Assembly: GCF_003634015.1 (NCBI RefSeq) | Contig: NZ_RBII01000002.1 | Span: 957,597-1,021,596 of the forward strand | Source: Litorimonas taeanensis | GTDB lineage: Bacteria > Pseudomonadota > Alphaproteobacteria > Caulobacterales > Maricaulaceae | Length of the DNA: 64,000 nt | Reading direction: 5' to 3' | Part shown: positions 4,308 to 25,164 of the stretch, piece by piece | Layout: each line of letters opens with the position of its first letter | How positions within the stretch are numbered: the first letter of the stretch is position 1 | Translations under genes and position numbers: made by a program | Notes under the pieces: generated by a model | Seen by the model: only the letters and a program-made list of their open reading frames with translations | What the model was told of the DNA's origin: nothing | Database searches by the model: none

Positions 4308-4329
4308 GAGAGTGGAGGGTGGAGCTATT

Positions 4330-5691: not shown

Positions 5692-6363
5692 TTGGTGGGG
5701 CAAACATTGACATTTAGTGTTCTTAAAGCTCGGCATAGAGAAATACGAACTTCAAAGGATTATCCCGAAGCTCTCTCTTTAAGGGTGCATCGCGCTTTAT
5801 CCTGGCTCAAACCTGCTGAAATTGAAGATGACTGCGATATAAAATTCATTCTCTATTGGATTGCATTTAACGCGGCATACGCCAAAACTGTACCCGAGCA
5901 CGACGCTTCATCTGAGAAAGACCAAATGAAATCATTCTTCGACCGACTGGTGAAGCTAGATGCAAGCAAGGTTATCTATAAATCAATTTGGTCCGAATTT
6001 TCGGGGTCGGTTCGCATTCTCCTCGAAAACAAATACGTCTTTGCTCCGTTCTGGCGCTATCAGCAAGAAGTGGTATCGAAGAGCGAATGGGAGATGTGGT
6101 TTGCTGCATCCAGAAAGCTCACGCAAAAATCGTTCATGAAACAAGATACAGTCAGCGTGCTATCCAGCTTGTTTCCACGTATATACACGCTCAGAAATCA
6201 AATTATTCACGGCGGTGCAACATGGCAAAGTGGAGTTAACCGTGACCAAGTCCGAGATTGCATGCGAATATTGGAAACACTCGTTCCCGTTTTCATTAGC
6301 CTGATGATGGAAGACATTCATGGTGATTGGGATATGCCTGCCTATCCTGTAGTGAGCGCGTGA
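5692..6363 (+). CDS. HEPN (Apea-like) protein, first gene of the defence operon
   Basis: A 223-residue helical protein. The C-terminal half contains RNQIIH at residues 168-173, the R-x4-H motif of HEPN ribonucleases, within LRNQIIHGGATW, and is followed by NRDQVRDCMRIL as in Apea-like HEPN proteins. The N-terminal part has the accompanying FILYWIAFNAAYA segment. HEPN proteins of this motif usually cut RNA, often as toxins or phage-triggered effectors. The start is TTG 5692 (GGGAGGGA 6 bp upstream); GTG 5695 is an alternative. It lies 52 bp before the SNF2 gene and is probably co-transcribed with it. It may be an RNA-cutting effector of the operon; that role is inference. Confidence 0.72.
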   Translation: MVGQTLTFSVLKARHREIRTSKDYPEALSLRVHRALSWLKPAEIEDDCDIKFILYWIAFNAAYAKTVPEHDASSEKDQMKSFFDRLVKLDASKVIYKSIWSEFSGSVRILLENKYVFAPFWRYQQEVVSKSEWEMWFAASRKLTQKSFMKQDTVSVLSSLFPRIYTLRNQIIHGGATWQSGVNRDQVRDCMRILETLVPVFISLMMEDIHGDWDMPAYPVVSA

Positions 6364-6415
6364 GGTGTTGTTGCATTCAGCTCTTGTATTCAGTCATTTT
6401 TATTGAGGGAGCATT

Positions 6416-9400
6416 TTGCGAACGCTTGACAACATAAACGATCTCTTTGGGGACGATCTCAAAGGCAGAATAAAAAAAGGTTCCAAACTGCAAATCGCGG
6501 CGTCCTGCTTTTCTATCTATGCTTATGAGGCCTTGAAAAAGGAGCTAGAGAAGGTCGACGCGTTGGAGTTTATTTTTACGGCTCCAACTTTCGTTCCAAA
6601 TGAGCAATCCGACAAAATCAGGAAAGAACGACGGGAATTTTCTATTCCAAAACGCGACCGCGAACGTGGCCTTTACGGGACGGAGTTTGAAATCAGGCTC
6701 AAAAACCAGCTTACCCAAAAAGCTATCGCCAAGGAATGCGCAGACTGGATAAGGCGGAAAGCGCGATTTAAATCCAATACAACCTCTGCGCCTATGCAAC
6801 AATTCGCGTGCATACCTGGAAATGATGCGATGGCTTATATGCCAATTCAGGGCTTCACGGCTGTAGACCTTGGGTATGAGCAAGGCAATGCGGTTTCTAA
6901 CATGGTCAACTGCTTGAATGAGCCGACTATGGCGAAAACATTTCTCGATTTGTTCGAGAATATCTGGCGTGACCCTACAAAGCTTCAGGATGTCACGGAA
7001 CAGCTCTGCAATCACATTGAAAATATCTATCAGGAAAACGCGCCAGATAAAGTCTATTTCCTAATCTTATATAATATTTTCAATGAGTTTCTTGAAGACT
7101 TAAGTGAAGACGTCCTTCCCAATGACCTGACTGGATATCAAGACAGCGTGGTTTGGAATACACTTTACAATTTTCAGAAAGACGCGGCTGTTGGTCTCAT
7201 CAATAAGCTTGAGACTTATAATGGCTGTATACTCGCCGACAGTGTTGGTCTGGGTAAAACTTTTACTGCTCTTGGAGTTATCAAATATTACGAGCTACGT
7301 AACAAGGCTGTACTTGTCCTTTGCCCGAAAAAACTCGCGGGAAATTGGCAGACCTATAACAGCAATCTAAAAACAAATATTCTAGCCAAGGACCGCCTAA
7401 ATTACGACATCCTTTGCCACACGGACCTTAGCCGAACGAGTGGTGAAAGTCTTGGACTTCCGCTCAATCAGGTCAATTGGGGTAATTACGATCTGGTCGT
7501 TATCGATGAGTCTCATAATTTCAGGAATAATGAAGCGCTCAAAGAGAAAGAGACACGATATCAAAAACTGATGCGTATGGTTATTCGAGAAGGCGTCATG
7601 ACCAAAGTCCTTATGCTCTCAGCTACACCGGTGAATAATCGTTTCACGGATCTACGCAATCAATTGGCTCTGGCCTATGAAGGAGAATCCTCCACGCTTT
7701 CTAAAAAGCTCGGAACTGAACGACCCATTGAAGACATTTTCAAACGGGCGCAGGCCGTTTTTAATGACTGGTCAAAACTGCCTACAGAAGAGCGCACGGC
7801 GGAACTTATCCTAGAGCGCCTTGATTTTGATTTTTTCAAACTTCTCGATAGCGTCACTATCGCTCGGTCTCGCAAACACATCACAACGTATTATGATACG
7901 GCAGATATTGGCGATTTCCCGAATAGACGACAGCCTGTTTCACATCGTTGTAAGCTGACCAGCCGCACGGATGTCATGAGCTTCAACGAAATCTACACGG
8001 ACCTCAGGCAGGTCAAAATGTCAGTCTACGCGCCAATCAGCTATGTCCTGCCGAGCCGTCTCAAAAAATATGAAGAGATGTACGACACTGAAGTTCGCGA
8101 AGGCAAAGGCCGCCTCACGCAAATGGACCGCGAAAAGGCTTTGCAAAGCTTGATGACTGTAAATTTGCTTAAGCGTCTTGAGAGTTCTGTCCACGCGTTT
8201 CGGCTGACACTCGAAAAGCTCAATAACTTTTATCTCTCAACGCTTGAGAAAATTGCCGCTTACGAAGCCACTGGTAAAATGGAGTCTATCGATAATATAA
8301 TCGATGACCTTGATCCAGATGATGATGAGCTCCCGACACCTGAAGAACAATTGATTGGTGGAAAAATTAAAATAGATCTTGCCGATATCGACCTGCCGAG
8401 CTGGAAACACGAGCTCCAAGGCGACCAGCATCTTCTTTCACATCTCTTGCTGGAAATGGAAAAGGTCAGCCCTGAAGACGACTTCAAACTTCAGCACTTG
8501 ATTCAAAGCGTTAAAGACAAAATCTTGGACCCGTTCAATCCGGGCAATAAAAAGGCGCTTATATTTACGGCCTTCTCTGACACTGCAGATTATCTGTATA
8601 AACATCTCTCTGCAGAAGTGACGGATCAGTTCCAGCTCCATTCAGCCTGCGTAACCGGCGGATCAGGCAATCCGAAATCGACATTGGGAACATCTTATGA
8701 CTTTCAGGAAGTCATGACATTATTTTCGCCGCGTTCCAAAAAGAAAGACCTTATACTTGAAAATGAACCGCGCGAGATTGACGTACTGGTCGGTACGGAT
8801 TGCATCTCCGAAGGACAAAATCTTCAAGATTGCGACATCGTCATCAACTACGATATTCATTGGAACCCTGTGCGAATTATCCAACGCTTTGGTCGGGTTG
8901 ACCGAATAGGTTCCACAAATACGGATATACAGCTGGTCAATTACTGGCCGGATATTTCACTTGATGAATATATCAATCTTAAAGACCGTGTAGAGTCGCG
9001 CATGGTTATCGCCGATGTCTCAGCGACGGGGGATGATAATGTCCTCTCTGCTAAAGCCAATGACACAGAATACCGTAAAGAACAGCTTCGCCGCCTTCAG
9101 GACGAAGTCATTGAGCTAGAAGATTTGAAGACTGGCGTATCAATCACTGATCTCGGTCTAAATGACTTTCGAATGGACCTGGTCCGCTATCTCAAAGATC
9201 ATCCCGATATTCCTAAACTACCCAATGGAATTCATACAGTTGTCACTGCGGCACCCGAAAAAGGGCTCGTCCCGGGCGTTATTTTCGCTATGAAAAACAT
9301 CAAGGCGACAACACCGGATATTGGTGGCCATAACAGGCTCCATCCATTTTATCTGGTCTATATCGGGCATGATGGAGAAATCATCGCCGAGCACTCTCGG

Positions 9401-9682
9401 GCAAAACACTTACTCGATTTGGCCAGAGCGGCATGTAAACCTTATCCAGAGCCGATTGCAAAGGTCGTGGAGCATTTCAACAAAAACACCAAAGATGGCC
9501 GTAATATGCAGGCCTATTCAGACCTTCTAGATAGTGCCATCAAGTCTATGATCAATGTCAAAGAGGACAAGGACATTGACAGCCTCTTTACTGGAGCGCG
9601 CACAACCGCGCTTCTCGACTCCATAGCTGGTCTGGATGACTTTGAACTGTTGGGTTTTATTGTTGTATATGGTGAGACTTAA
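6416..9682 (+). CDS. SNF2-family helicase with possible PLD-like N-terminus
   Basis: A 1088-residue superfamily 2 ATPase. The N-terminal 270 residues (for example KLQIAASCFSIYAYEALKKE) resemble the truncated phospholipase-D-like domain seen on 'helicase-related' defence proteins; I see no clear HKD pair, so nuclease activity is not supported. Motif I is ADSVGLGKT (about 273-281), motif II VIDESHN (about 362-368), motif III SATPVNN (about 401), and the C-terminal helicase lobe contains EGQNLQDCDIVINYD and QRFGRVDRIGS (about 800-835). The start is TTG 6416 after GAGGGA. It abuts the DUF4391 gene with no gap. It probably moves on DNA as a partner of the type III Mod/Res proteins downstream. Confidence 0.85.
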   Translation: MRTLDNINDLFGDDLKGRIKKGSKLQIAASCFSIYAYEALKKELEKVDALEFIFTAPTFVPNEQSDKIRKERREFSIPKRDRERGLYGTEFEIRLKNQLTQKAIAKECADWIRRKARFKSNTTSAPMQQFACIPGNDAMAYMPIQGFTAVDLGYEQGNAVSNMVNCLNEPTMAKTFLDLFENIWRDPTKLQDVTEQLCNHIENIYQENAPDKVYFLILYNIFNEFLEDLSEDVLPNDLTGYQDSVVWNTLYNFQKDAAVGLINKLETYNGCILADSVGLGKTFTALGVIKYYELRNKAVLVLCPKKLAGNWQTYNSNLKTNILAKDRLNYDILCHTDLSRTSGESLGLPLNQVNWGNYDLVVIDESHNFRNNEALKEKETRYQKLMRMVIREGVMTKVLMLSATPVNNRFTDLRNQLALAYEGESSTLSKKLGTERPIEDIFKRAQAVFNDWSKLPTEERTAELILERLDFDFFKLLDSVTIARSRKHITTYYDTADIGDFPNRRQPVSHRCKLTSRTDVMSFNEIYTDLRQVKMSVYAPISYVLPSRLKKYEEMYDTEVREGKGRLTQMDREKALQSLMTVNLLKRLESSVHAFRLTLEKLNNFYLSTLEKIAAYEATGKMESIDNIIDDLDPDDDELPTPEEQLIGGKIKIDLADIDLPSWKHELQGDQHLLSHLLLEMEKVSPEDDFKLQHLIQSVKDKILDPFNPGNKKALIFTAFSDTADYLYKHLSAEVTDQFQLHSACVTGGSGNPKSTLGTSYDFQEVMTLFSPRSKKKDLILENEPREIDVLVGTDCISEGQNLQDCDIVINYDIHWNPVRIIQRFGRVDRIGSTNTDIQLVNYWPDISLDEYINLKDRVESRMVIADVSATGDDNVLSAKANDTEYRKEQLRRLQDEVIELEDLKTGVSITDLGLNDFRMDLVRYLKDHPDIPKLPNGIHTVVTAAPEKGLVPGVIFAMKNIKATTPDIGGHNRLHPFYLVYIGHDGEIIAEHSRAKHLLDLARAACKPYPEPIAKVVEHFNKNTKDGRNMQAYSDLLDSAIKSMINVKEDKDIDSLFTGARTTALLDSIAGLDDFELLGFIVVYGET

Positions 9683-10333
9683 TTGAGTGCCCTCTTCGCA
9701 TATCCAAAGCGAGCGAAGTTTGACCGTATGGTCTCCAAGACCAAGCTGTTTTCATATGAGAAAGCAACACCGCGTATTCGAGACCTATTCTCCGACCAAG
9801 TGGAGCAAGTGCGTTGGATTTATAAACTAGCCCCTGAAACGATCAATCTAATGGCCTCAAAAAATGTGCCTGAAATTCAAATTTTTAACCTTAGGCTTAA
9901 AGGTGAAGAATTGGATGATGATGTTCTCAGACATATAGACAAAGCCATTGCCTTTCCGATAATTTTTGAATTGGCATATGGCGACAATCGTAAAGCTGTC
10001 GCTTCGCCAAAATGGCAGGGCGGCAAGCCAGGCAAACATTATTATGCCTCTAACTGGGTGGCTGAACAGAGCGAGAGGCAAGTCTTACCCGTCGCCACAA
10101 ATCTAGAGGGACTTTACAGCCAGCTATTACAAAGCTTGATGCCCTATAAGGGACGTGACTATGAAGGTCTATTCGAGCTTAATGCCCGCATTGAAGAGAT
10201 AAGATCACTCGAGAAAAGATGCGAGTCCCTTCGCTCTAAGATAGGCAAAGAGAAACAATTTAATCGTCGAGTGGAATTTAATCGGGAACTTAAGAAAACG
10301 TCCGAACATCTTTCGGAGTTGATCCATGGTTAG
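9683..10333 (+). CDS. DUF4391 protein
   Basis: A 216-residue protein of the DUF4391 family. A globular first part (with FELAYGDNR and a basic WQGGKPGKHYYASNW strand segment) is followed by a C-terminal coiled coil from about residue 165 on (IEEIRSLEKRCESLRSKIGKE). DUF4391 genes are often found between a SNF2/PLD helicase and type III mod-res genes, as here, which implies a shared complex. The biochemical role is not established. The start is TTG 9683, directly after the helicase stop, so translation is probably coupled. The last 8 bases overlap the next gene. Confidence 0.82.
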   Translation: MSALFAYPKRAKFDRMVSKTKLFSYEKATPRIRDLFSDQVEQVRWIYKLAPETINLMASKNVPEIQIFNLRLKGEELDDDVLRHIDKAIAFPIIFELAYGDNRKAVASPKWQGGKPGKHYYASNWVAEQSERQVLPVATNLEGLYSQLLQSLMPYKGRDYEGLFELNARIEEIRSLEKRCESLRSKIGKEKQFNRRVEFNRELKKTSEHLSELIHG

Positions 10334-11267
10334 ATATGTATGGTGGTGCGAACATGAACGGCTTTGTGCTTCGGGTGTTATAACGAGCGTACGGGGTCAC
10401 TTTAAAGGTCTACAGAATGCTCTTCCTGATATCCGAAAGCGCTATGATTTTGCTAAGCTGGTTGCTGAAAAAGGATCCAATTGGGGCGATCAATTCATAA
10501 CACGTGGCGCCCCGTGCCCACAATGTGACAGGCCAACTTATTATTATTCACGAGAGAAACATGAGCATGCATGGTTTGATAGGGTTGGCTATAAATGGGT
10601 TACGCATAAATGCATGTCGGATATCATTACGGAATGCCAACCCGCAAAAGCTGCCCAAAAATACACCCCAAGGGCTATCCCTGAGAGACGTCCTTTAATA
10701 TTAGTGCGCAAGAAGAAAAAAGCACATATAGCGCAAAATTTGAAAATCATTGAAGAGCAAAAGCGCAGCCCAATTCAGACCAATTATATTTGTCCTGACT
10801 GCAATAGTGCGGTTTATAAGTTTCAGTCTTCAAATGGCAGACAAGCTTTATTTGATACTTTGGAACCAACTTGGTCAAAGCATGCTTGCCTTACTTCCAA
10901 TACGGAGCCAGTAGGAGCATCGTCAGAACAAACAAATATAAAACTTGCCGATTTAAAGAGCATTTTTGAAAAACCCGGCACCACTCCAGAGATTGGCTCG
11001 ACCCTAGAAAATATGACGCAGCTTGGCCTACCTCATGTCTTGTGCAAGGTAATGAAAATTACGCGCTATCAGAAAGGTTTTCGAATACGCCTAAACCCTC
11101 TGGCTCTCCCCAAGGTTGACATCGTTATTTTTGGTCGTTTTTTAGAAAACCAGATAAATGGTTTGAATTTCGTGTATCTTAAAGAGAATCATATCAAGTT
11201 TCTTTCGCTTCACAGCCTTTTGCCAATTGAAGCTGAAATAGAATATCATGACGTCAGACAAATGTAG
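10326..11267 (+). CDS. Protein with two CX2CX26HXC zinc-binding modules
   Basis: A 313-residue protein of unknown function. Two repeats share spacing CX2C-X26-HXC: Cys64, Cys67, His94, Cys96 and Cys156, Cys159, His186, Cys188. Both include an aromatic stretch and FD...W..H.C (AWFDRVGYKWVTHKC and ALFDTLEPTWSKHAC). This pattern strongly suggests two small zinc ribbons. A basic linker (LILVRKKKKAH) separates them, and the last 100 residues look like an OB- or beta-barrel-type domain (inference). The ATG at 10326 overlaps the DUF4391 stop by 8 bases, and mod begins 9 bp after it, so it is embedded in the cassette. It may recognise nucleic acid or bridge subunits; it is not part of the usual mod-res sets I know. 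Confidence 0.7.
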   Translation: MVRYVWWCEHERLCASGVITSVRGHFKGLQNALPDIRKRYDFAKLVAEKGSNWGDQFITRGAPCPQCDRPTYYYSREKHEHAWFDRVGYKWVTHKCMSDIITECQPAKAAQKYTPRAIPERRPLILVRKKKKAHIAQNLKIIEEQKRSPIQTNYICPDCNSAVYKFQSSNGRQALFDTLEPTWSKHACLTSNTEPVGASSEQTNIKLADLKSIFEKPGTTPEIGSTLENMTQLGLPHVLCKVMKITRYQKGFRIRLNPLALPKVDIVIFGRFLENQINGLNFVYLKENHIKFLSLHSLLPIEAEIEYHDVRQM

Positions 11268-11276
11268 GACCCTCCC

Positions 11277-13154
11277 GTGGACAATAAACAAAATATAGAA
11301 AAACTGGATATGACGACGCCCAATATCACTGATGCCAATGTCGCGCGGATTGCAGAACTGTTTCCGAATGTCGTGACCGAGGGCCGGGATGAAAATGGCA
11401 AGCTCACCCATGTCGTCGATTTTGATGCGCTGAAGCAGGAGCTCTCTGATTCTATCGTTGAAGGACCGCAAGAACGCTATCGTCTGGATTGGCCCGGCAA
11501 ACGCGAAGCTATGCTGGCGGCCAATACGCCGATTACGAAAACTTTGCGCCCGGTCCGCGAGGAGAGTGTGGATTTCGACACCACCAAAAACCTGTTTATC
11601 GAAGGCGATAATCTGGACGCGCTCAAACTCTTGCAGGAAACCTATTTGGGCAAGGTCAAGATGATCTATATCGATCCGCCCTATAATACGGGTAAGGATT
11701 TTATCTATAAGGATAATTTTACAGGCGATAAGCAGGACTATCTTGAGGATAGCGGACAGGTGGATGAAGAGGGCGGGAAATTAGTCGCCAACCCTGAAAG
11801 CAATGGTCGCTATCACTCTGATTGGCTTTCAATGATGTATCCGCGTTTGAAGCTTGCGCGGAACTTACTAAGGGATGATGGCAATTTCTTGATTAGCCTA
11901 GATGAAAATGAAATAAACAACGCCAGAATTATTCTTGACGAAATATTTGGAAAAACTAATTTTGTAGGAACAATAGCTTGGGAGTCAAAAACTAAGTCTC
12001 AAAATACCCAAGGCGCATATAATAAGCTACAGCCAAAAGTAGAGTATATTCTCCTCTATACTAGGGCATCGGGAAGAAGATTTAATCTGAGAGTTGCAGG
12101 GGAGAAGGCTTATCCCGAAATTGATGAAAAAGGTAAATATCGACTGCACAGACAGGAAGCAATGAGCGCCCAAGGAATACGAGGTCGCGAAACGATGATA
12201 TACGACATGCTAGAGATATCTCCCCCAGAAGGACGACAATGGCAAGTCGGGAAAGAAACCTATGAGAAGTTTTTATCACGCGATGATGTTTTTTTAGATG
12301 GACAAACACCGGTGTTTAAGATGCGCCCCGGTGACGAAAGAGGCTCTATAACAGAACCGTTTTGGGGTTTTTTTTCAAAAGATTGCGGAACAGCGGAAAG
12401 TGCGAAAAAAGAACTCTCAGGTCTCTTAGATGGAAAAATTCATGCATTTGATACTGTGAAACCGACTCAAATCCTTAGCGACTTAATCTTTCACTGCACC
12501 AAACAAGGAGACATAGTTTTAGATTTCTTTGCGGGTTCGGGATCAACTCACAATGCATCGTTTGTCGAGTCTACGCGATCTGGAGAAAGAACAGTAATTA
12601 GTGTTCAGCTTGGGAATGCATCAACAAATGTTGAATTAAAAGAGGCCAGCGATTTTGACGACGTTTCTCAATTATCCAAAGAACGCATTCGCCAAGCGGG
12701 TAAGAAAGTTTTGGAAGAAAATTCTGACCAAGCTGGGACGTTGGACGTAGGTTTCCGTGTCCTAAAAATCGACAGTTCTAATATGAATGATGTCTATTAT
12801 GCGCCGGGCGAGCTTGAACAAGGCAGTCTCTTGGATGCTGTGGAACACATTAAGCCTGACCGTACAGCTGAAGATCTTTTGTTTCAGGTCATGTTAGATT
12901 GGGGTGTGGATTTGGCACTGCCCATTACACTAGAGGTGATTGACGGTAAAACCGTTTATTGGGTGGGCGAGGATAATCTGGCCGCCTGTTTTGATCTGAA
13001 AATCACCGAAAACATCATAAAAGCTATGGCAGAACGAAAGCCTCTTAGGGCTGTTTTCCGAGATGATGGGTTTGGATCTGATGATATGAAAATCAATGCC
13101 GGACAGCTTTTTGCGCAAATGACAGATGGTCATACGGACATGAAAGTTATCTAG
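11277..13154 (+). CDS. mod: Type III restriction-modification methyltransferase (Mod)
   Basis: A 625-residue beta-class DNA methyltransferase. The catalytic motif IV DPPY is at residues 133-136 (YIDPPYNTGKDF), and the SAM-binding motif I is in LDFFAGSGST near residue 417. The central target-recognition region lies between them, as in EcoPI/EcoP15I Mod, and predicts N6-adenine methylation. The start is GTG 11277, 9 bp after the zinc-module gene, and res follows 5 bp after the stop. The target-recognition segment (about 11,860-12,700) is more AT-rich than the flanks (18 G+C in 11941-12000 against 28 in 11581-11640 and 29 in 12781-12840), suggesting swapping. Runs of T7 and T8 occur in it. It should set self versus non-self for Res. 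Confidence 0.93.
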   Translation: MDNKQNIEKLDMTTPNITDANVARIAELFPNVVTEGRDENGKLTHVVDFDALKQELSDSIVEGPQERYRLDWPGKREAMLAANTPITKTLRPVREESVDFDTTKNLFIEGDNLDALKLLQETYLGKVKMIYIDPPYNTGKDFIYKDNFTGDKQDYLEDSGQVDEEGGKLVANPESNGRYHSDWLSMMYPRLKLARNLLRDDGNFLISLDENEINNARIILDEIFGKTNFVGTIAWESKTKSQNTQGAYNKLQPKVEYILLYTRASGRRFNLRVAGEKAYPEIDEKGKYRLHRQEAMSAQGIRGRETMIYDMLEISPPEGRQWQVGKETYEKFLSRDDVFLDGQTPVFKMRPGDERGSITEPFWGFFSKDCGTAESAKKELSGLLDGKIHAFDTVKPTQILSDLIFHCTKQGDIVLDFFAGSGSTHNASFVESTRSGERTVISVQLGNASTNVELKEASDFDDVSQLSKERIRQAGKKVLEENSDQAGTLDVGFRVLKIDSSNMNDVYYAPGELEQGSLLDAVEHIKPDRTAEDLLFQVMLDWGVDLALPITLEVIDGKTVYWVGEDNLAACFDLKITENIIKAMAERKPLRAVFRDDGFGSDDMKINAGQLFAQMTDGHTDMKVI

Positions 13155-13159
13155 GCCTT

Positions 13160-16100
13160 ATGACCCGTCAGATATTCAAACATATGGCCTATCAGGGCGA
13201 GGCGGTGGACGCTGTCGTCGACTGCTTTGAAGGCCAGCCACGCGAGAGCGGGTTTCGTTATCGCATGGATCCGGGCCTCATAAAAAAGGGCGAGCGCCTG
13301 CGGCAAGACTATGAGCTGGAAGCTTTGCGGAACACTGAAATCCGCCTCACTGAAGGCGATGTATTAAAAAACATCAATGGGGTTCAACAACGCGGCATTG
13401 CCAAAAACCGCGCTATGACCCGCGAGGGCGCTCTACGCGATGCCTATGGTAAGGACTGGTTTAATGGCGGGAAGCTCGCCGCGCCTAAAATCTGCGGGAT
13501 TAATCTGGATGTAGAGATGGAGACAGGCACGGGTAAAACCTATGTCTATATTAAAACCATTTTTGAGCTGAATAAGCGCTATGGCTGGAGCAAATTCATC
13601 GTCATGGTGCCGAGCATCGCTATTCGTGAGGGCGTCTATAAAACCTTCTCTGACACGGCTGATCACTTCCAAAGCGATTATGAGACGAAAGCCAATGTCT
13701 TTATCTATAATTCGCGGCATCTGGATAAGCTGGAAAGTTTCAGCTCCAATGCCGGCATTCAGGTCATGGTTATCAATACGCAGGCTTTTAATGCGACTGG
13801 CAAGGATGCCCGCCGTATTTTTATGGAACTGGATGAGTTTCAATCACGTCGACCGATAGATGTGATCGCCGCCAACCGTCCCATTCTTATTTTGGACGAA
13901 CCGCAAAAGATGGAGGGAACAAAGACGGTTGAAAGCCTAGCGAAGTTTAATCCACTTTTCACTCTGCGTTACTCTGCAACCCACAAAACGGTTCATAATC
14001 TGGTGCACCGCCTTGATGCGCTTGATGCCTATAACAAAAAGTTGGTCAAGAAGATTGCCGTGCGCGGGATAACTGTCCGTCACTTGCCGGGGACGAGTGA
14101 TTATCTCTATGCGGAGCAAATCCGTGTCTCCACGACTAGGCCACCGCAGGTGCGCTTACGTATTGAGAGTAAAACCGCTAGCGGAACCGTAAAACGAAAA
14201 TCTATCTGGGGCGATAAAGGCACGAACCTTTCAGATGCTTCTGGCGGGATTGGTGCGTATGGGGATTATGTCATTTCGGATATTCGCGCGGATCGGAACG
14301 AGGTACATTTCACGGCAAAGGACCCAATAAAGGTCGGACAGGTTTATGGCGATGTCACCGAAGATACACTGCGCCGCATTCAGATACGCGAAACTATCCG
14401 CGCCCATTTGGAGAAAGAAAAGCGACTATTTTCTCAAGGTATAAAAGTGCTTTCTCTATTCTTTATAGACAGTGTCGCTAAATATCGCATTTACGGGGAT
14501 GAAGGCGCAACGGGCGGTGAATATGCCCATATCTTCGAAGAAGAGTATAAACGCGCCGTGGATGAATTAGGTGTTTTAGATGACCCCGACTATATGGCTT
14601 ATTTGGCCCGTGATGAGGCTTCGCAAATCCATCAGGGTTATTTTTCTGTCGATAAGAAAGGTAAGCTCAAAGACCCGAAGGAAGCAAAAAAGGGGGAGTT
14701 TGCAGGCCATGCTATGGGCGAAGATGCGTCTGATGCCTACGAGCTTATCCTGAAGGATAAGGCACGGCTTTTATCTATCGAGGAGCCTGTACGTTTTATC
14801 TTCTCTCATTCGGCTCTGCGCGAAGGCTGGGACAATCCTAATGTCTTCCAGATTTGCACGCTCAAACAAAGCAGCAATGATATTTCAAGGCGTCAAGAAG
14901 TCGGGCGGGGTCTACGAATTTGCGTTAACAAATTAGGCGACCGCATGGATGACCCGGCTATTGTCCACACTATCAATGTCCTTACCGTTATCGCCAGTGA
15001 GAGCTATGAAGACTTTGTCGACGGCTTTCAGAAGGAAACTCGGGAGAGCCTTAAGGCGCGGCCCAAACAAGCGAATGAAGCTTATTTCAAAGGCAAGATA
15101 TTTGAAATTGAGGGCGGTGATAATGTGCTGGTTGATGAGGCCATGGCCCGCGCGCTTTATCGCTACCTCATCAAGAATGATTATACGGATGATAATGATC
15201 ATCTCAATGAGACCTATCAAACCGATAAAGAGAATGGAACTTTGGCGGCCTTACCGGAGACAATTGAGCCTTATGCAGTACAGGCCTTTGCTCTAATCGA
15301 TAGCGTACTGTCGGATGCCAGCCTGCCATCAATTGATGACGACCTGGCCAAGCTGGAAAACAAGCGCCACGAGGATAACTTCGCTAAAAAAGAATTTCAG
15401 AAGCTCTGGAAAACTATCAATCGCAAAGCGGTCTATCTGGTGGATTTCGATACGGATGAGTTGATCGCTAATTGCATAAAGGCCATCGATAAAAATGTTC
15501 GTGTCGTTGCAACAACCTATACCGTCAAAAAAGGCGAGCAAAGAGATAGCTTCTCAGCAGATGACCTTCAGAGCGGTCAAAGTTTTGGAAATGAAGTGCG
15601 TGAAGATCAAGCCGCATTTGGTGAAAAATCGTTAGGGCTTTCCAATGTACGATATGACCTCGTCGGAGATATATCAAAGAAAACCGCTCTAACACGCAAA
15701 ACTGTAGGTCGGATTTTGCAAGGAATTAGCACTGCTGTTTTTAGCACATACAGGGACAATCCTGAGATGTTCATCTCAGAAGTGTCCAAAGTCGTTGATG
15801 ACGAAAAGGCCACGGCAGTTGTCGAGCATATCAGTTATAACCTTCTCGATGAAACATTCAGTGACGCTGATATTTTTACTAAATCCACAATCATACCTGA
15901 CGGATTGAAACGTGCAAAACCTGCTAAGAAACATGTCTATGAATATGTAATCAGCGACTCTGGTACAGAGCGAAAATTCTCAGGTGAGCTCGATGCAAGT
16001 GGAGACGTCGTTGTCTACGCCAAGCTTCCAGGCGGCTTTTATATTCCTACGCCTGTTGGCAATTATAATCCCGATTGGGCCATCGCTTTTGAAGAGAACG

Positions 16101-18505: not shown

Positions 18506-19806
18506 GAACGCTGACGATCTTTGAGCACGCTTATGTGAGTATTTCTGATAAACCTGCCGAGGGGCGTCTGATGCAAGCGGACGTCGAGGCATTAGACCTC
18601 GCTCAAAAATCCATGGGAGCGAATGCTTTTGCGTGGGACGGACGCAACAGGATAAAAGCATCGCAATTTGTGGGTATCATTGCCGCACCCGGAATCAGGC
18701 TTGAAATTCTGCCAAAGATTGACAAAAGTGAAAATATAGAGACACGCGGCACATTGATAAAAATGATTGCTGCGGCACTATCTATTCCAATTTATGACGG
18801 TGATATAACGCCTCTCAATTCTCAAGACCAGGATTTTCTTGAAATCCTTGTACTTGTATTTGCGCGCCGATTAGCAAGCGAAGTTCGAAAAGGACTGACC
18901 CGTAATTATAAACGGCAGACTGATGATTTGGCACGACTGCGGGGCAAATTGGATGTGACGCGTCAGTTCACAAAATTCGCGGCTACGCCTCAAATTCTTG
19001 CTTGCGAATTTGATGAGTTTAGCGCTGATAATGCGCTGAACAGGCTCTTGGCGTGCGCGACGTCTCTCTTGATGAGAAAGACTAATGTTGCCACCACTCA
19101 GCGTCTCCTAGCGGAAATTGATGCTCACTTCGCCGAGGTTTCGCCAGTGACAGTTCAGCAGGCACTCCAAGAACCGATAATCCTGGATCGCAAAAACCAA
19201 AGATGGAGTGTGTGCGAGAAACTCGCGAGGTTACTTCTGCAATCTTTGTATCAAACAGTTCATGGTGGGAAGCGCGAGGGTGTGGCCCTGCTCTTTGATA
19301 TGAATAAACTGTTTGAAGCTTATGTAACTCGCCTTGCGCAAAAGACCTTGAGACCGATGGGTTACACTGTTTGGACCCAAAAACCGCAAAAAGCCTTAGT
19401 GCATGACAAGGAAGGGCGACGCGCCTTCATCACCAAACCTGATATCTATGTGAAGGGGCATGGCGAAGTAATAATAATTGATACTAAATGGAAGACGCTC
19501 GATTTCTCAAAAGGAAACTTTGGTATTTCGCAAGCTGACGCGTACCAAATGCATGGATATGCAAGAGTCTATGATGCCACAAAAACTATTCTGCTCTACC
19601 CACAAATGCATGATAAATCGGGTGCATTCGCAAGTTGGACCTTTGAGAATTCGGATACCCAATTACAAGTGGCTACAATCGATATTCTAGACGAAACAAA
19701 AATGGCGGAAAGCTTATTGTCGATAGTCCAGCTGCAAGGCAATTCGCTTAGTGGGACCGAAATCTCGCAAAGGTACGATCACGCTAGTTTAGCTGCGCAG
19801 GTATAA
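18502..19806 (+). CDS. mcrC: McrC-like nuclease subunit
   Basis: A 434-residue McrC family protein. The N-terminal part (KASQFVGIIAAPGIRLEILPKI) is the McrB-binding beta domain. The C-terminal PD-(D/E)xK nuclease shows KPDIYVKGHGEVIIIDTKWK near residues 312-331, with the catalytic Asp and the D-x-K pair present. The ATG at 18502 overlaps the mcrB stop by 4 bases, so translation is coupled. McrB and McrC together form a motor-nuclease that cuts modified DNA. The gene ends 5 bp before the TM0106-type nuclease-helicase gene, which keeps the operon continuous. Confidence 0.92.
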   Translation: MRTLTIFEHAYVSISDKPAEGRLMQADVEALDLAQKSMGANAFAWDGRNRIKASQFVGIIAAPGIRLEILPKIDKSENIETRGTLIKMIAAALSIPIYDGDITPLNSQDQDFLEILVLVFARRLASEVRKGLTRNYKRQTDDLARLRGKLDVTRQFTKFAATPQILACEFDEFSADNALNRLLACATSLLMRKTNVATTQRLLAEIDAHFAEVSPVTVQQALQEPIILDRKNQRWSVCEKLARLLLQSLYQTVHGGKREGVALLFDMNKLFEAYVTRLAQKTLRPMGYTVWTQKPQKALVHDKEGRRAFITKPDIYVKGHGEVIIIDTKWKTLDFSKGNFGISQADAYQMHGYARVYDATKTILLYPQMHDKSGAFASWTFENSDTQLQVATIDILDETKMAESLLSIVQLQGNSLSGTEISQRYDHASLAAQV

Positions 19807-19811
19807 GCAAA

Positions 19812-22800
19812 GTGTATTTATCTTCCGGACAGCTTGTATTTTCACCCTCGGACCTCATCACATTCATGGAGTCAGAATATGCTTCTGCAATGGAGCGGTT
19901 GAAGCTCGGAGATGAGTCTATCGCTGAATTGATGGATGCCGAAGATGTGGTGTTGGCGAGCTTGCAGCAAAAAGGTTACGCCCATGAGGATGCCTTTACG
20001 GAGCGGCTCAAGACTCTTGGCAAGGATGTTCTGGAGACGAAGCGGGCCACGCCTCAGCAGACCTTTGATGCCACTTTAGAGGCTATGAAAGCTGGGCAAG
20101 AAGTTATCACGCAGGGTTACCTCTCTTTAGGGCAATTTGGTGGGTTTACGGATTATTTGGTCCGCGTGCCTGGGGCCTCTAATTTTGGCAATTATCACTA
20201 TGAGGTCTGGGACACGAAGCTCTCTAAAAAGCTCAAACCTTATTTTGCCATTCAGCTCTGTTGTTACATTGAAATGCTGGAAGCCATTCAGGGGGTAAGA
20301 CCCAAGCAGATGGTTGTCGTGTTAGGTGACGAAACAGAAGCCCGGCTGAATGTCGATAATTACTTTGCCTATTATCAGAATTTGAAATCAGCATTTTTAG
20401 CATTTCATGCGGAGCCTCCGAAAGGCTTGCCGGACCCAAATATCAGTAAGAGCTATGGCCGCTGGAGTGACCTTGCCCATGAGCAGCTTGTTGAGCGTGA
20501 TCATCTTTCCCTCGTGGCTAATATTTCTCGCTCGCAAGTCAAGAATTTAGAGAAAGCCGGTATTTTCACGATGCAGGCTTTAGCGGATAGCGAGCTTACG
20601 AGCATTCCCAATATGAGCGGCAATGTCTTTGCACGGGCAAAAGCCCAAGCCAAATTGCAAATCGCGTCGAGGGGTAAGGAGATACCTGATTATACTATTC
20701 TGCCGCATGAAACGGGCGCGCAGCGCGGTCTTGCGATACTCCCGCCCCATAGTGGGAATGATGTGTTCTTTGATATTGAGGGCTGCCCCCATATTGAAGG
20801 CGGGCTCGAATATCTCTGGGGCAATACTTATTTTGATAAAAGCGGCACGAAACAGTTCAAAGAGTTTTGGGCGCACGATTATAAGCAAGAAAAAACAATA
20901 TTCACCGAGTTCATTGATTGGATTTACGGCCTGTGGCTCGAAGACCCAACCATGCATGTCTATCATTATGCCAATTATGAGATAGCGGCCATACGCAAGT
21001 TGATGGGACGCTATGGCGTATGCGAAGAGAAGGTTGATAACCTTCTGCGCAATAATGTCTTTGTCGATTTGTATAATGTCGTGCGCCACGGCATCATGAT
21101 TGGCGAGCCGCGTTACTCCATTAAAAATGTTGAGCATATTTATCGCGGTAAACGCGACACTGACGTCGCCTCCGGCGGTGAAAGTATTGTCGTCTATGAG
21201 AACTGGCGTGAGGATCCAGATGGGCTGACATGGGAAACTTCGAAAGTTCTGAACTCTATTCGGGATTATAATATTGATGATTGTGATAGCACACAGGAGC
21301 TGACTGTCTGGCTGCGGGATGAGCAGGCCAAGCATAATATTGCCTATCTTGTGCCCGACGGCGAAGGCGAGAAAGAGGTGCCTGAAGAGGTCACAGACAT
21401 CACCCAATTACGAGACCGTTTATTAGAGGCGTCTGAAACGCAAGAGGATGTGAAACGCGCGGCGCTGCTGGATGTTTTAGCTTGGTCGTTGGAGTTTCAT
21501 CGCCGTGAGAACAAGCCGACATGGTGGCGACTCTATGAGCGGCTTGGATGGACGGAGCCTGAATTTTTTGATGATATGGACTGCCTCGCAGGTCTGACCC
21601 GAACGGCTACCGAGCCTTATCTGCCTACATCGCGCGCGCGTAATCATGTCTATGAATATGCTTACGATACGAACCAACCCTTCAAAGGCTCGGGTAAGAA
21701 GTTCTATGTTCTGGGCGAAGAGAATATGAAGATCTCCCGCTATGCTTATGACCCCGATGCCGGATTGATTTCCTTCCAATATAAGGAGCCTTTGCCCAAT
21801 AGATTGAGCATCCTACCTGATGAATATGTCAGGCCCGTGCCTATTCCAGGCGCGATTAAGGCCGTCATCGAAACACTATTTGAGACTGATTTTGAGCCTT
21901 GCGCGATTGTGGATTTTTTAACCCGCTCTCGCCCCCGTATTACTGGTTTTTCAGGCGGTGACATTATCAGGACTGAGGCTGATTTTATGGCCGAAATCAT
22001 TCAGGCCGCGACAAATCTGGACAATAGCTATCTGTGCATTCAAGGACCGCCAGGCGCAGGAAAAACCTATACCGCTAAGCATATTATTGGTGAGCTCCTG
22101 CGCCAAGGCAAACGGGTAGGCATTTCGTCTAATAGTCATAAGGCGATTATCAATCTGATGAAAGGCGTGGCTGAATATGTTGATGGCGAGAGTATTGATT
22201 GCAGCATAGTCAAAGCGGGCGGCGATAAAGAGGATGAAATCTTTGACAGGGACAATGTAAACTATGTTGCCAGTGTAACAAAGTTCACACCGAAAGATGG
22301 ATGCTGCTTTGGCGGTACGGCATGGGCTTTTAGTAATGAGCACGTCAAAGACAGTTTCGACTATCTATTTATTGACGAGGCGGGCCAAGTCTCTGTCGCC
22401 AATATGATCGGTATGAGCCAATCCTGCAGCAATATCATTCTCATGGGTGACCAGATGCAGCTCGGCCAGCCTATCCAAGGCACGCATCCCGGAGAGAGCG
22501 GGATGTCTATTCTGGATTACTTACTTGAAGATCATGCCACTATCCCATCCGATATTGGTGTGTTTCTGCCAAAGACGTTTAGGATGCATCCGAATGTGTG
22601 TGATTTGATTTCACGGCAAGTCTATGAGGGTAAACTGTCATCTGACGAAGTGACTCATAAGCATATTGTAGAGACTTCTGGGCCGTTAATTACGCAGCCA
22701 TCAGGTGTCTGTTTTGTCCCAGTTGCCCATGAGGGAAATACGCAAGGCAGTCCCGAGGAAGTGGAACACATTTCAGCCATCGCCAATGAACTTATCGGCA

Positions 22801-23168
22801 GTCCTTATTGGCCGGACCCTGAGGGGAATGAACGGGTGATTGGATGGGGCGATGTTCTATTTGTTGCGCCATATAATTATCAGGTTAATTTACTGCGGGC
22901 GGCACTGGGAGACAGTGCGAAGATTGGCAGTATTGACAAATTCCAAGGCCAGGAAGCGCCTATCGTTATTCTGTCTATGTGCGCCTCAGATGCCGCAGAT
23001 AGTCCGCGCGGTATAGATTTCCTGTTTTCTAAGAACAGGATGAATGTGGCGATATCGCGAGCGCAAGCTTTAGCGATTGTCGTGGGGAATCCGAAGCTGG
23101 CGCAAACCAGCGTCAATAGTTTGAAGCAGATGGAACAGATTAATTTTTTCTGTGATATTGTGAGGTAG
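19812..23168 (+). CDS. TM0106-type RecB-like nuclease fused to UPF1-like SF1 helicase
   Basis: An 1118-residue three-part protein. A RecB-family PD-(D/E)xK nuclease lies at about residues 105-160 (GFTDYLVRV, then YEVWDTKLS and YFAIQLCCY). An RNase H-like DEDD exonuclease region lies at about 315-500, starting VFFDIEGCP. A superfamily 1 helicase lies at about 735-1118, with Walker A GPPGAGKT (about 745), motif II FIDEAGQ (about 853), VLFVAPYNYQVNLLRAAL, SIDKFQGQEAP and NVAISRAQ. The start is GTG 19812. Members of this family are annotated as 'TM0106 family RecB-like putative nuclease'. It may degrade phage DNA or unwind recombination intermediates. It is more G+C rich than mcrB (30 G+C in 20761-20820). 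Confidence 0.88.
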   Translation: MYLSSGQLVFSPSDLITFMESEYASAMERLKLGDESIAELMDAEDVVLASLQQKGYAHEDAFTERLKTLGKDVLETKRATPQQTFDATLEAMKAGQEVITQGYLSLGQFGGFTDYLVRVPGASNFGNYHYEVWDTKLSKKLKPYFAIQLCCYIEMLEAIQGVRPKQMVVVLGDETEARLNVDNYFAYYQNLKSAFLAFHAEPPKGLPDPNISKSYGRWSDLAHEQLVERDHLSLVANISRSQVKNLEKAGIFTMQALADSELTSIPNMSGNVFARAKAQAKLQIASRGKEIPDYTILPHETGAQRGLAILPPHSGNDVFFDIEGCPHIEGGLEYLWGNTYFDKSGTKQFKEFWAHDYKQEKTIFTEFIDWIYGLWLEDPTMHVYHYANYEIAAIRKLMGRYGVCEEKVDNLLRNNVFVDLYNVVRHGIMIGEPRYSIKNVEHIYRGKRDTDVASGGESIVVYENWREDPDGLTWETSKVLNSIRDYNIDDCDSTQELTVWLRDEQAKHNIAYLVPDGEGEKEVPEEVTDITQLRDRLLEASETQEDVKRAALLDVLAWSLEFHRRENKPTWWRLYERLGWTEPEFFDDMDCLAGLTRTATEPYLPTSRARNHVYEYAYDTNQPFKGSGKKFYVLGEENMKISRYAYDPDAGLISFQYKEPLPNRLSILPDEYVRPVPIPGAIKAVIETLFETDFEPCAIVDFLTRSRPRITGFSGGDIIRTEADFMAEIIQAATNLDNSYLCIQGPPGAGKTYTAKHIIGELLRQGKRVGISSNSHKAIINLMKGVAEYVDGESIDCSIVKAGGDKEDEIFDRDNVNYVASVTKFTPKDGCCFGGTAWAFSNEHVKDSFDYLFIDEAGQVSVANMIGMSQSCSNIILMGDQMQLGQPIQGTHPGESGMSILDYLLEDHATIPSDIGVFLPKTFRMHPNVCDLISRQVYEGKLSSDEVTHKHIVETSGPLITQPSGVCFVPVAHEGNTQGSPEEVEHISAIANELIGSPYWPDPEGNERVIGWGDVLFVAPYNYQVNLLRAALGDSAKIGSIDKFQGQEAPIVILSMCASDAADSPRGIDFLFSKNRMNVAISRAQALAIVVGNPKLAQTSVNSLKQMEQINFFCDIVR

Positions 23169-23175
23169 GCCCAAG

Positions 23176-25164
23176 ATGAAAAACAAAACTTACCGTAATC
23201 TGTTAGCGGATGTTTTGGATAGCCTTGAAGGTATTAAAGCTGCCATTTTACAAACATCAATAGACGAAGTGCGGCGAGTGAGGGTGAACTCCACAAGGGC
23301 GCTTAAAGGACTCGTCTATGTTGGCGCAACCAGTTCTACATTAGGGATTGTCACTTTATTTGGCACAGCCGGTACTGGGACAGCCATATCAACTTTAAGC
23401 GGGGCGGCCCTCACGAGCTCGCAATTGGCGTTTCTAGGGTTTGGCTCCATGGCAACAGGAGTTGTGGTTTTAGGCGCGATCGGCTTTGCGACCTGCCAAG
23501 CCGTCGGTTGGATGTATAAGACAACGGTTTATGGAAAACCCCGCAAGTTTAAAACGCTCTCGGATAATGAAGTGTCTATTCTGAGTATGATTGATAGCCT
23601 AGTCGCGCCTCTGGCAGATGCGTTGGAAACTACATCTGAAAATCACGCATATTCACGAGAAGATATTTTTCTATATGCTTTTGATGGGCTCGCACCTTTG
23701 CAGGATTTATTGGAAGAAGAATTTGGTTCGAATGTCTTTATCGATGAAAAAGTCGTTCAAGATGTCAATAACTCAATAAAACTTTCATTGGCGTCAAGAG
23801 CTGCTTTAAAAAGAAGGTTTTGGGGACTTGTACAGGCCGTTGAGCGCATCACAAATCGCGCCTTAAATGACGTTATGACGCGATTGGAGGCAGGTGTCGC
23901 GCCAGCTAGTTCTCCGGTCCATAATCTCGTAGTTAAAGCGCTACGCCAAAGCGTTGCGCCGCAGGAGGTAAGTGATCTAAAACTTGCCGACTGCGTAAGG
24001 AGGTTTGACCGCCAGAAAAATGAGACTGTTAAAGGTCAAGCTAAATTGATTTTACTTAAACAGTTGGAACAACTCAAACAGCCGCATGCTCTTGAAAAGG
24101 TCGAAGGAGCTGTCATCGTCACAGTTGACGGCGTTTCAAAAACTATTGGGACGCACGGCAAGAAACTTATCAAAACAAGCACTGAGAAAATGAGGCCAGC
24201 GGTGGGCGTATTCAAAGACGAAATGGCGCAGCCGCGTTGGGATCGCGTCCGTGACCATAATTTATTAAAACCGGAAGGTAGACTCGCGACGGCGGTTACA
24301 AGTGCGGCTCCAAAAATTCAGAACTTAACGGGTAATGCAAAGGGTCTGGGGCGTAAAGTTATTGGAGACTTTTGGCGAAAGACTAAGATTGCTAGAGATA
24401 AGCTTGAAGATGCAGCGGCAACAAATGTCTTGGAGTACAACTCAGAAACATCTTATAGTGAACCTCAATCCCGGTTAGCTTCTGTCGTCATTGCCGTGTG
24501 CGTCGAGCGCTTGATGAGTAATAGGCTGCGGTACTGGACGTTGGAAGAAGATCTCGTGCTTCAAGCTCTTAGATTATCTATCCCAGATTTATCAGAGGCC
24601 GATATTACGGAACTCTCTTCATATTTACGAAATAGTGATCCAGCCCAAATGCGGGGTGTCCTTGCGACAACGAAAGGAAAATATCATGAACTTATTGTTA
24701 AGCAGGCTGAAAATATGGATGGGGACGAGGTTTCGGCGAGGCTTTTTGAAGACCTGAATCATCCCGGAAGTGACATTGAATTTATCGTGGATGGGCAGGT
24801 CATTGAAGAAGTTCAGTTAAAGGCCGTCGTTTCAGAAGCGCTGATAATTGAGCATCAAAGTAAATATCCTGATATTACAATATTGGCGACAGAAGAAGCT
24901 GCCAGCCGTGTTGATGGGGTGGAAAGTTCAGGGTTTTCTAATGCGCAATTGCAGGCCGATGTTGAAGAGAGGCTAAAGGAGCTTGAAGGTGACGGAACTC
25001 TTGACAATATGGGTGATGCCTTTGTTGTGTCAGCTCTAAGTCTTGCGGCTTTAAACGCAAAGAAAATTGCCAAAGGGGATGTTAGTGCGGATGATCTGCG
25101 TACATCTGCAAATGACATTGCCGCAGGGCTCACAACATCAATTCTGTTGGATATGATATTTTGA
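23176..25164 (+). CDS. Membrane protein with glycine-rich hairpin, last gene of the defence operon
   Basis: A 662-residue protein that I do not recognise. Residues about 46-115 form two hydrophobic, glycine/alanine-rich segments (LFGTAGTGTAISTLSGAA, then LGFGSMATGVVVLGAI). Such glycine-zipper stretches recur in membrane-inserting effectors and in conjugation or defence proteins. The rest is soluble, mostly helical and charged, with a QLKAVVSEALIIEHQ segment near 540-555 and a weakly hydrophobic C-terminus. It starts 7 bp after the nuclease-helicase stop and ends the run of ten genes; a 216-bp gap follows. A membrane-disrupting or membrane-sensing role is a guess from the hairpin and the context. 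It could instead be a structural or transport protein. Confidence 0.6.
   Translation: MKNKTYRNLLADVLDSLEGIKAAILQTSIDEVRRVRVNSTRALKGLVYVGATSSTLGIVTLFGTAGTGTAISTLSGAALTSSQLAFLGFGSMATGVVVLGAIGFATCQAVGWMYKTTVYGKPRKFKTLSDNEVSILSMIDSLVAPLADALETTSENHAYSREDIFLYAFDGLAPLQDLLEEEFGSNVFIDEKVVQDVNNSIKLSLASRAALKRRFWGLVQAVERITNRALNDVMTRLEAGVAPASSPVHNLVVKALRQSVAPQEVSDLKLADCVRRFDRQKNETVKGQAKLILLKQLEQLKQPHALEKVEGAVIVTVDGVSKTIGTHGKKLIKTSTEKMRPAVGVFKDEMAQPRWDRVRDHNLLKPEGRLATAVTSAAPKIQNLTGNAKGLGRKVIGDFWRKTKIARDKLEDAAATNVLEYNSETSYSEPQSRLASVVIAVCVERLMSNRLRYWTLEEDLVLQALRLSIPDLSEADITELSSYLRNSDPAQMRGVLATTKGKYHELIVKQAENMDGDEVSARLFEDLNHPGSDIEFIVDGQVIEEVQLKAVVSEALIIEHQSKYPDITILATEEAASRVDGVESSGFSNAQLQADVEERLKELEGDGTLDNMGDAFVVSALSLAALNAKKIAKGDVSADDLRTSANDIAAGLTTSILLDMIF

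What the first reader, a model, noticed from the sequence alone, without database searches (positions are those of the whole stretch)
5692..25164. Ten-gene composite defence operon in one transcription unit
Ten genes run in the same direction with gaps of 0-52 bp or overlaps of up to 8 bp: HEPN, SNF2 helicase, DUF4391, double zinc-module protein, Mod, Res, McrB, McrC, TM0106 nuclease-helicase and a membrane protein. Parts of it are known separately: SNF2-DUF4391-mod-res cassettes and mcrBC (family knowledge). I know no named system with all ten. The tight spacing suggests one co-regulated system that modifies self DNA, cuts unmodified DNA, cuts foreign-modified DNA and may end with RNA or membrane damage.
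Basis: partly seen in the sequence, partly recalled or inferred. Interest (0 to 1): 0.85.

Follow-up and report, generated by a model that had tools for sequence, protein, structure and literature searches.

The report
Layered anti-phage operon on mobile island
Ten tightly packed bacterial genes, carried on a 29-kb mobile island in a tRNA gene, combine two restriction systems, a nuclease-helicase that may eat DNA ends, and possible last-resort toxins; the exact ten-gene set was found only here, but most of its parts recur together in shuffled order in two other bacteria.

Summary
In detail: ten co-directional ORFs at 5692-25164, gaps -8 to +52 bp, no terminator signal above chance. They are cargo of a 29.2-kb island in tRNA-Thr: 55-nt att repeats, adjacent integrase, empty site in a same-genus genome. 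No other locus examined holds all ten genes. SNF2-DUF4391-Mod-Res is a widespread type III restriction cassette with two insertion slots (extra DNA in 39 of 68); the zinc protein is slot-1 cargo. In two other alphaproteobacteria the cassette lies with McrBC and TM0106 in one locus; one (G680) is an 11-ORF co-directional run in permuted order. HEPN, TM0106 and McrBC also cluster without the cassette. Unequal identities (TM0106 82%, its neighbours 20-44% in G726) point to repeated assembly from modules, not one inherited ten-gene machine. Best reading: an echeloned superoperon. Mod marks self, Res/SNF2 and McrBC cut, the Dna2-like TM0106 enzyme degrades ends, HEPN and the membrane protein act last. 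Superoperons of this kind are published (CoCoNuTs, PMC11090510); this McrB has the ordinary NxxD motif, so it is not a CoCoNuT. New variant of a known kind; function untested.

The parts
4102..4156 (.). left att repeat: 55 nt, 3' part of tRNA-Thr plus flank
   Evidence: the repeat finder D1, 54/55 identical to 33299-33353
4300..5463 (+). tyrosine integrase of the island
   Evidence: Pfam Phage_integrase, Arm-DNA-bind_3, SAM-like
5692..6363 (+). HEPN protein, 223 aa, Rx4H motif (LRNQIIHGG), predicted RNase
   Evidence: motif in relatives; homologs
6416..9682 (+). SNF2-type helicase, 1088 aa, of the type III cassette
   Evidence: Pfam SNF2-rel_dom/Helicase_C; PADLOC C3a139 HKD+Snf2 420 bits
9683..10333 (+). 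DUF4391 protein, 216 aa
   Evidence: Pfam PF14335 159.7 bits; alignment A1
10326..11267 (+). double zinc-module protein, 313 aa; insert in slot 1 of the cassette
   Evidence: two CPxC...HxC modules; relative in G680
11277..13154 (+). type III Mod, N6-adenine methyltransferase
   Evidence: PDB matches Mod/EcoP15I
13160..16282 (+). type III Res, helicase plus endonuclease domain
16307..18505 (+). McrB: NTPase with NxxD motif and a sub-threshold EVE-like match between Walker A and B
18502..19806 (+). McrC with PD...DxK nuclease motif
   Evidence: Pfam PF10117 252.8 bits; motif
19812..23168 (+). TM0106 nuclease-helicase: RecB-like nuclease, DEDD-type RNase_H_2 domain, UPF1/DNA2-type SF1 helicase
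23176..25164 (+). predicted membrane protein, 662 aa, possible effector
   Evidence: PADLOC PDC-M09A/PDC-M72B partial; hydropathy
33299..33353 (.). right att repeat, overlapping tRNA-Thr
33306..33381 (-). intact tRNA-Thr(tgt), integration target
   Evidence: ARAGORN

Best explanation
A mobile, echeloned restriction superoperon assembled from interchangeable modules. Step 1 (inferred from family): Mod methylates one adenine motif and protects self. Step 2 (inferred): Res, helped by the SNF2-DUF4391 pair, finds and cuts unmethylated incoming DNA. Step 3 (inferred): McrBC cuts incoming DNA with modified bases, so phages that evade step 2 by base modification are still hit. Step 4 (proposed here): the TM0106 enzyme, built like Dna2 (RecB-type nuclease plus UPF1/DNA2-type helicase) with an extra DEDD-type exonuclease domain, degrades DNA from the ends made in steps 2 and 3. 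Step 5 (weakest): HEPN cleaves RNA and the membrane protein damages the membrane if the earlier layers fail. Shown here: gene content, intact motifs in HEPN, McrB, McrC and TM0106, an island with an empty site in a relative, and recurrence of seven of the families together in permuted order.
For: Ten tight co-directional genes. Motifs intact in HEPN, McrB, McrC and TM0106. The TM0106 helicase matches UPF1, SMUBP2 and DNA2 structures. G680: TM0106-165aa-DrmD-464aa-McrB-McrC-161aa-SNF2-DUF4391-Mod-Res co-directional. G726: McrB-McrC, TM0106 82% (opposite strand), SNF2-DUF4391-Mod-Res. Acaryochloris plasmid: HsdM, PDDEXK, HsdS, HsdR, SprT, McrC, McrB, TM0106 on one strand. G168: HsdS-HsdR-AAA/TOPRIM-UvrD-TM0106 on one strand. 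TM0106 beside SbcD-SbcC on two Sphingobium plasmids, an end-processing context. Class rates outside the own genome: TM0106 5 of 249, McrC 3 of 117; yet 2 of 5 other alphaproteobacterial DUF4391 genomes have both at the cassette. Island: att repeats, empty site in same-genus G787.
Against: No transcript, phage or biochemical data. Among 80 Res-anchored loci, tblastn finds no McrB, McrC, HEPN, zinc or membrane homolog and one weak TM0106 match; window-seeded profiles add partial McrB-like matches in 3 and helicase-type TM0106 matches in L063, L099 and L114, but still no McrC. Of 22 other DUF4391 genomes, 2 (G438, G469) have McrC and 1 (G389) TM0106 away from the cassette. Of 9 loci reached through TM0106 itself, McrBC is adjacent in 2; G065 has McrC on another contig. 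Of 8 other genomes with a HEPN homolog, only G159 has TM0106 beside it. The membrane protein has only partial relatives (8 of 371 other genomes; 2 plasmids), none seen beside McrBC. Defence genes cluster in general, numbers are small, and UPF1-type helicases often act on RNA.
Confidence: 0.55

Rival explanations
1. Stacked independent defence systems on one island: a type III cassette, an McrBC system and single-gene effectors share a promoter by arrival, not by function.
For: Identity to relatives differs by gene (G726: TM0106 82%, McrB 44%, SNF2 44%, McrC 39%, Mod 36%, Res 35%, DUF4391 20%). Order is permuted. Modules exist without the others: cassette alone, TM0106-McrB-McrC with HEPN but without the cassette. 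GC3 differs by gene, 0.349 to 0.512.
Against: The same seven families are gathered in one locus in G680 and G726 although TM0106 and McrC are each rare in the class; strict co-orientation with gaps up to 52 bp here.
Confidence: 0.35
2. A CoCoNuT-type system: McrBC plus UPF1-like helicase plus HEPN that targets RNA, with type III RM as ancillary layer.
For: UPF1-like helicase, HEPN and McrBC in one superoperon, and such superoperons can include Mod/Res (PMC11090510).
Against: McrB has NxxD (NTAD), not the NxD that defines the branch; McrC keeps PD...DxK; HEPN is a separate small protein at the other end of the operon, not a wHTH fusion next to the helicase.
Confidence: 0.05
3. TM0106 and HEPN form an older, plasmid-borne defence pair, and the cassette and McrBC are later insertions between them.
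For: HEPN and TM0106 lie within about 1 to 14 kb of each other in 7 of 9 HEPN-anchored plasmid loci opened (of 26 records), and here they stand at opposite sides of the other genes; both occur in G159 and, on separate contigs, in G060.
Against: Only 1 of 8 other genomes with HEPN has TM0106 beside it; two of the 7 plasmids are near-identical Sphingobium arrangements; HEPN was not found at the G680 and G726 loci.
Confidence: 0.15

Closest known systems
CoCoNuT-associated superoperons (Bell et al. 2024, PMC11090510; seen: abstract, sections 6 and 7, section 11 part 1 of 2, passages of others)
   Same: Many co-directional defence genes (reported upward of 40 kb) joining McrBC, UPF1-like helicase, HEPN and DNA restriction systems including Mod/Res; proposed echeloned defence ending in dormancy or death.
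   Different: McrB NxxD not NxD; active-looking McrC; none of the ten genes matches a CARF/RtcR regulator apart from a weak HEPN-part match to a CARF-HEPN model; helicase carries RecB and DEDD nuclease domains; HEPN not fused to wHTH.
E. coli-type McrBC beside type I RM in one orientation (as stated in PMC11090510 section 6)
   Same: NxxD McrBC in one unidirectional array with a modification-based RM system.
   Different: Type III RM with SNF2-DUF4391 instead of type I; TM0106, HEPN, zinc and membrane genes added.
SNF2-DUF4391-Mod-Res type III cassette
   Same: Same four-gene order in plasmids and genomes of many phyla.
   Different: Here slot 1 holds a rare zinc protein and McrBC-TM0106 follows Res.
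Defence genes embedded in prokaryotic immune systems (Payne et al. 2024 preprint; only its title seen, in a reference list; content recalled)
   Same: Extra genes nested inside known defence operons.
   Different: Not read; whether it covers this cassette is unknown.
Dna2 and Mre11-Rad50 end resection (recalled; helicase match)
   Same: RecB-type nuclease plus UPF1/DNA2-type helicase; TM0106 sits beside SbcDC on two plasmids opened.
   Different: Additional DEDD-type domain; defence context; no activity known.

Membership tests
Type III restriction-modification | Mod methyltransferase and Res helicase-nuclease in one operon | tested here: met
   MTase_III 666.8 bits, REase_III 984.5 bits, 5 bp apart
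Type III restriction-modification | Needs two inversely oriented unmethylated sites (recalled) | not testable with these tools
   biochemical
SNF2-DUF4391 type III cassette | Order SNF2, DUF4391, Mod, Res on one strand | tested here: met
   elsewhere 68 loci with SNF2, Mod and Res on one strand, DUF4391 found by profile in 61 of them
McrBC type IV restriction | McrB NTPase with Nx(x)D and McrC with PD-(D/E)xK | tested here: met
   NTAD; PF10117 252.8 bits; KPD...DTK
McrBC type IV restriction | Cuts DNA with modified bases | not testable with these tools
   only a sub-threshold EVE-like match (18.8 of 23.0 bits)
CoCoNuT | NxD form of the McrB motif | tested here: not met
   NxxD in the window and in 6 of 6 aligned McrB relatives; definition
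CoCoNuT | Long coiled-coil fused to McrB | not tested
   no coiled-coil prediction run
DISARM | DrmD-grade SNF2 helicase | tested here: not met
   142.9 bits against cut-off 610
DISARM | DrmA, DrmB, DrmC present among the ten | tested here: not met
   only a helicase-level match of the SNF2 protein to a DrmA model, 59.8 bits
Mokosh | Full MkoA or MkoC proteins | tested here: not met
   best-scoring stretches lie in the helicase part of TM0106 only
TM0106 family RecB-like nuclease | TIGR03491 above cut-off | tested here: met
   240 bits, cut-off 97.45
HEPN RNase | Rx4-6H motif in a HEPN fold | tested here: inconclusive
   motif conserved; family score below cut-off; no fold obtained
Integrative genomic island | Integrase, att direct repeats at a tRNA, empty site in a relative | tested here: met

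The most novel reading that the evidence does not exclude
TM0106 nuclease-helicases are a general 'resection' partner of bacterial restriction: a Dna2-like enzyme with an added DEDD-type exonuclease, recruited again and again behind type III RM, type I RM, McrBC, BREX, Gabija-like and SbcCD genes to destroy the DNA ends made by the first cut, with a HEPN RNase as abortive back-up. The window is the fullest assembly seen here: cut unmodified, cut modified, resect, abort, in one mobile operon.
Probability: 0.25. Interest if true: 0.75.

Novelty: new variant of a known kind. Interest (0 to 1): 0.5.

Why it matters
It gives a natural test of whether layered restriction is merely stacked or truly cooperative: three alphaproteobacterial loci gather the same seven gene families in different orders, so selection for the combination can be separated from descent. 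It also points to an unstudied enzyme family (TM0106) as a possible shared downstream nuclease of several defence systems; the PADLOC models searched match only its helicase part.

Tried and rejected
Rejected: a fixed ten-gene system (no second case in the loci opened); CoCoNuT membership (NxxD motif); DISARM membership; Mokosh membership. P0004 and P0010 gave no confirmed relative in viral contigs, and P0004 none in plasmids. TM0106 in phage records gave two weak helicase-range matches only. A megablast of the whole operon against plasmids found 14 records; the ten listed (of 14) cover at most 3% of the query. A PDB sequence search found no convincing relative for DUF4391 (best E 0.55) or HEPN (best E 0.15). 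An HKD nuclease in the SNF2 N-terminus was considered; the two blocks printed for 46 aligned proteins show no HxK, but the rest of the N-terminus was not examined. Structure prediction for DUF4391 was asked for; the machine was busy each time, so there is no model and no fold search. The promoter and terminator scan gave counts at or below shuffles and decides nothing. Papers: searches for DUF4391, TM0106 and COG2251 listed 1, 2 and 3 papers, none on these genes in phage defence by title; further searches. This covers only the held open-access library.

Dropped or kept rows: one search left out L059 (same plasmid as L010) and loci without SNF2, Mod and Res on one strand; it kept five rows with truncated SNF2 matches (L087, L100, L120, L121, L125) and near-copies such as L010/L011, and some slot-2 inserts are insertion sequences (L009). 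Of 42 DUF4391 plasmid records 9 were opened; of 26 HEPN records 9; of 266 TM0106 records 4 through TM0106 hits; of 290 McrB records 1; of 2 P0010 records 2.
Full report
Observation. The ten ORFs exist as described, all on the + strand, spaced -8 to +52 bp, with families confirmed by Pfam, PADLOC and NCBIfam except for the zinc protein, which matches none, and the membrane protein, which matches only two PADLOC candidate models in part. HEPN is a weak label: below the Pfam cut-off, but Rx4H is kept in 20 of 22 aligned rows, two of them the window's own. Motifs of McrB (GPPGTGKT, DEINR, NTAD), McrC (KPD...DTK) and TM0106 (RecB-type D, DTK, Q; DEDD-type DIE and YN..DC; helicase GPPGAGKT, DEAGQ) are intact. 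Promoter-like and terminator-like matches are at or below shuffled counts, and no + strand terminator-like site falls between genes.

The island. A 55-nt direct repeat (54/55) lies at 4102-4156 and 33299-33353; the right copy overlaps an intact tRNA-Thr. A tyrosine integrase follows the left copy. Nineteen of 20 relatives searched, the own genome included, have the flanking gene 34030-35841. Seven of them were opened there, five of the same genus and two of the same order. None shows any of the ten proteins in the stretch fetched (tblastn E<=1e-6; one stretch, G787, is only 5.2 kb). In G787 the left flank (window 3868-4156, 81% identical, of which 55 nt are the repeat) and the right flank (33354 onward) match adjoining bases, L208 2652 and 2651: an empty site. 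The host is alphaproteobacterial by inference: the 'same class' genome G331 has an 84,850-base contig, the size of the Phaeobacter porticola plasmid NZ_CP016367.1.

Module 1, the type III cassette. DUF4391 is found in 42 plasmid records and in 23 of 398 genomes of the phylum sample, own included. Of 80 Res-anchored loci from many phyla (best 80 of at least 587), 46 have SNF2, Mod and Res on one strand; with 9 plasmid and 13 unnamed-genome loci this makes 68, and DUF4391 is found by profile in 61 of the 68. Of the 68, 24 carry extra DNA between SNF2/DUF4391 and Mod, 29 between Mod and Res, 14 in both, and 29 in neither. So the cassette has two cargo slots; annotated inserts include an ATP-dependent endonuclease, DUF2130, AAA/DUF4276 and RNA-binding proteins. 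The zinc protein P0004 is slot-1 cargo. It is rare: outside the window 1 weak match in 384 class genomes, none in plasmids, and one relative of 179 aa in G680.

Module 2, McrBC, TM0106 and HEPN. TM0106-McrB-McrC with a divergent HEPN occurs on Leisingera and Aminobacter plasmids and in G159. An Acaryochloris plasmid has type I RM genes, SprT, McrC, McrB and TM0106 on one strand. Of 18 TM0106 loci examined in all, the window included and one split by an insertion sequence, 7 have McrBC in the locus; of the 9 reached through TM0106 itself, 2 do. Other TM0106 neighbours are SbcD-SbcC, BREX and TrlF genes, and type I RM with an AAA/TOPRIM-UvrD pair (the name Gabija for such a pair is recalled). 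HEPN lies within about 1 to 14 kb of TM0106 in 7 of 9 HEPN-anchored plasmid loci, but beside it in only 1 of 8 other genomes with HEPN. The membrane protein P0010 has only partial relatives: 8 of 371 other class genomes and 2 plasmids, none seen beside McrBC in the loci opened.

The two modules together. Of 22 other genomes with DUF4391, McrC is in 4 and TM0106 in 3. Both are in G680 and G726 only, and there both lie at the DUF4391 cassette; in G438, G469 (McrC) and G389 (TM0106) they lie elsewhere. G680 reads TM0106, 165 aa, DrmD, 464 aa, McrB, McrC, 161 aa, SNF2, DUF4391, Mod, Res on one strand, with gaps up to 116 bp by mechanical ORF starts and a divergent zinc-protein relative. This is the window's seven families in permuted order. 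G726 has McrB-McrC, TM0106 on the opposite strand (82% identical), then SNF2-DUF4391-Mod-Res. A Variovorax plasmid has an McrC fragment 2.8 kb after Res; an insertion between them is my guess. Class rates outside the own genome are 5 of 249 for TM0106 (E<=1e-40) and 3 of 117 for McrC, so finding both at the cassette in 2 of 5 other alphaproteobacterial DUF4391 genomes looks well above independent chance. Defence-gene clustering weakens that comparison and no formal test was run.

Results against a general link. In the 80 Res-anchored loci tblastn finds no McrB, McrC, HEPN, zinc or membrane homolog and one weak TM0106 match. Profiles grown from the window proteins add partial McrB-like matches in L072, L103 and L114 and helicase-type TM0106 matches in L063, L099 and L114 (358-476 bits) but no McrC; L099 lacks the nuclease motifs. 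Only 52 of the 80 extend 4 kb beyond Res and 34 also 9 kb before it.

Descent or assembly. Best-segment identities to the window in G726 are TM0106 82%, McrB and SNF2 44%, McrC 39%, Mod 36%, Res 35%, DUF4391 20%; in G680 TM0106 64%, SNF2 65%, Res 54%, McrB 38%. Such unequal values and the different orders fit repeated assembly from modules better than inheritance of one operon; no trees were built.

Mechanism. From family knowledge, Mod protects self and Res with SNF2-DUF4391 restricts unmodified DNA. McrBC restricts modified DNA; its sub-threshold EVE-like stretch (387-487) lies between Walker A (228) and Walker B (525), in keeping with specificity inserts reported in McrB GTPase domains (PMC11090510 section 6). 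TM0106 has a RecB-type nuclease, a PF13482 domain predicted to be a 3'-5' exonuclease (PMC3985635, passages) and a helicase like UPF1 and DNA2. I propose that it degrades the ends the restriction enzymes make. HEPN and the membrane protein would act last; this step is the least supported.

Known or new. Echeloned superoperons with McrBC, HEPN, UPF1-like helicases and RM systems, Mod/Res included, are published (PMC11090510). NxxD McrBC with type I RM in one orientation is also stated there. This window differs by the NxxD McrB with the SNF2-DUF4391 cassette, the nuclease-bearing TM0106 helicase and the order. I rate it a new variant of a known kind.

Noticed in passing
window 25381-27341: Two overlapping + strand ORFs (96 and 559 aa) 216 bp after the operon, with no Pfam or PADLOC match and lower GC (0.38); may be a further defence or toxin-antitoxin-like pair.
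   Followed up: no
window 4275-4307 and 33214-33246: A second 33-nt direct repeat just inside both att sites (94% identical), possibly integrase arm sites.
   Followed up: no
L197 (G168) 8088-19846: HsdS-HsdR-AAA/TOPRIM-UvrD-TM0106 on one strand: another RM array ending in TM0106.
   Followed up: partly
L005 14741-21181: Variovorax plasmid: type III cassette followed 2.8 kb later by an McrC fragment.
   Followed up: partly
L103 1939-2424 and L114 7558-8040: Short proteins (about 160 aa) matching part of the window McrB profile (about 103 bits) sit in the insertion slots of other cassettes; they may share its target-recognition part.
   Followed up: no
window 3426-3812: IS240-type transposase fragment left of the island; an 86% identical match lies near the same tRNA in G795.
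   Followed up: no
G794:C3, G795:C7, G722:C9: Matches to the flanking gene 34030-35841 hold one in-frame TGA in 3 of 19 genomes; sequencing error, decay or recoding not tested.
   Followed up: no
window 6416-9682, residues 125-175: A strongly conserved block (GFTAVDLGYxxGNAVSN) in the SNF2 N-terminus across phyla, of unknown role.
   Followed up: partly
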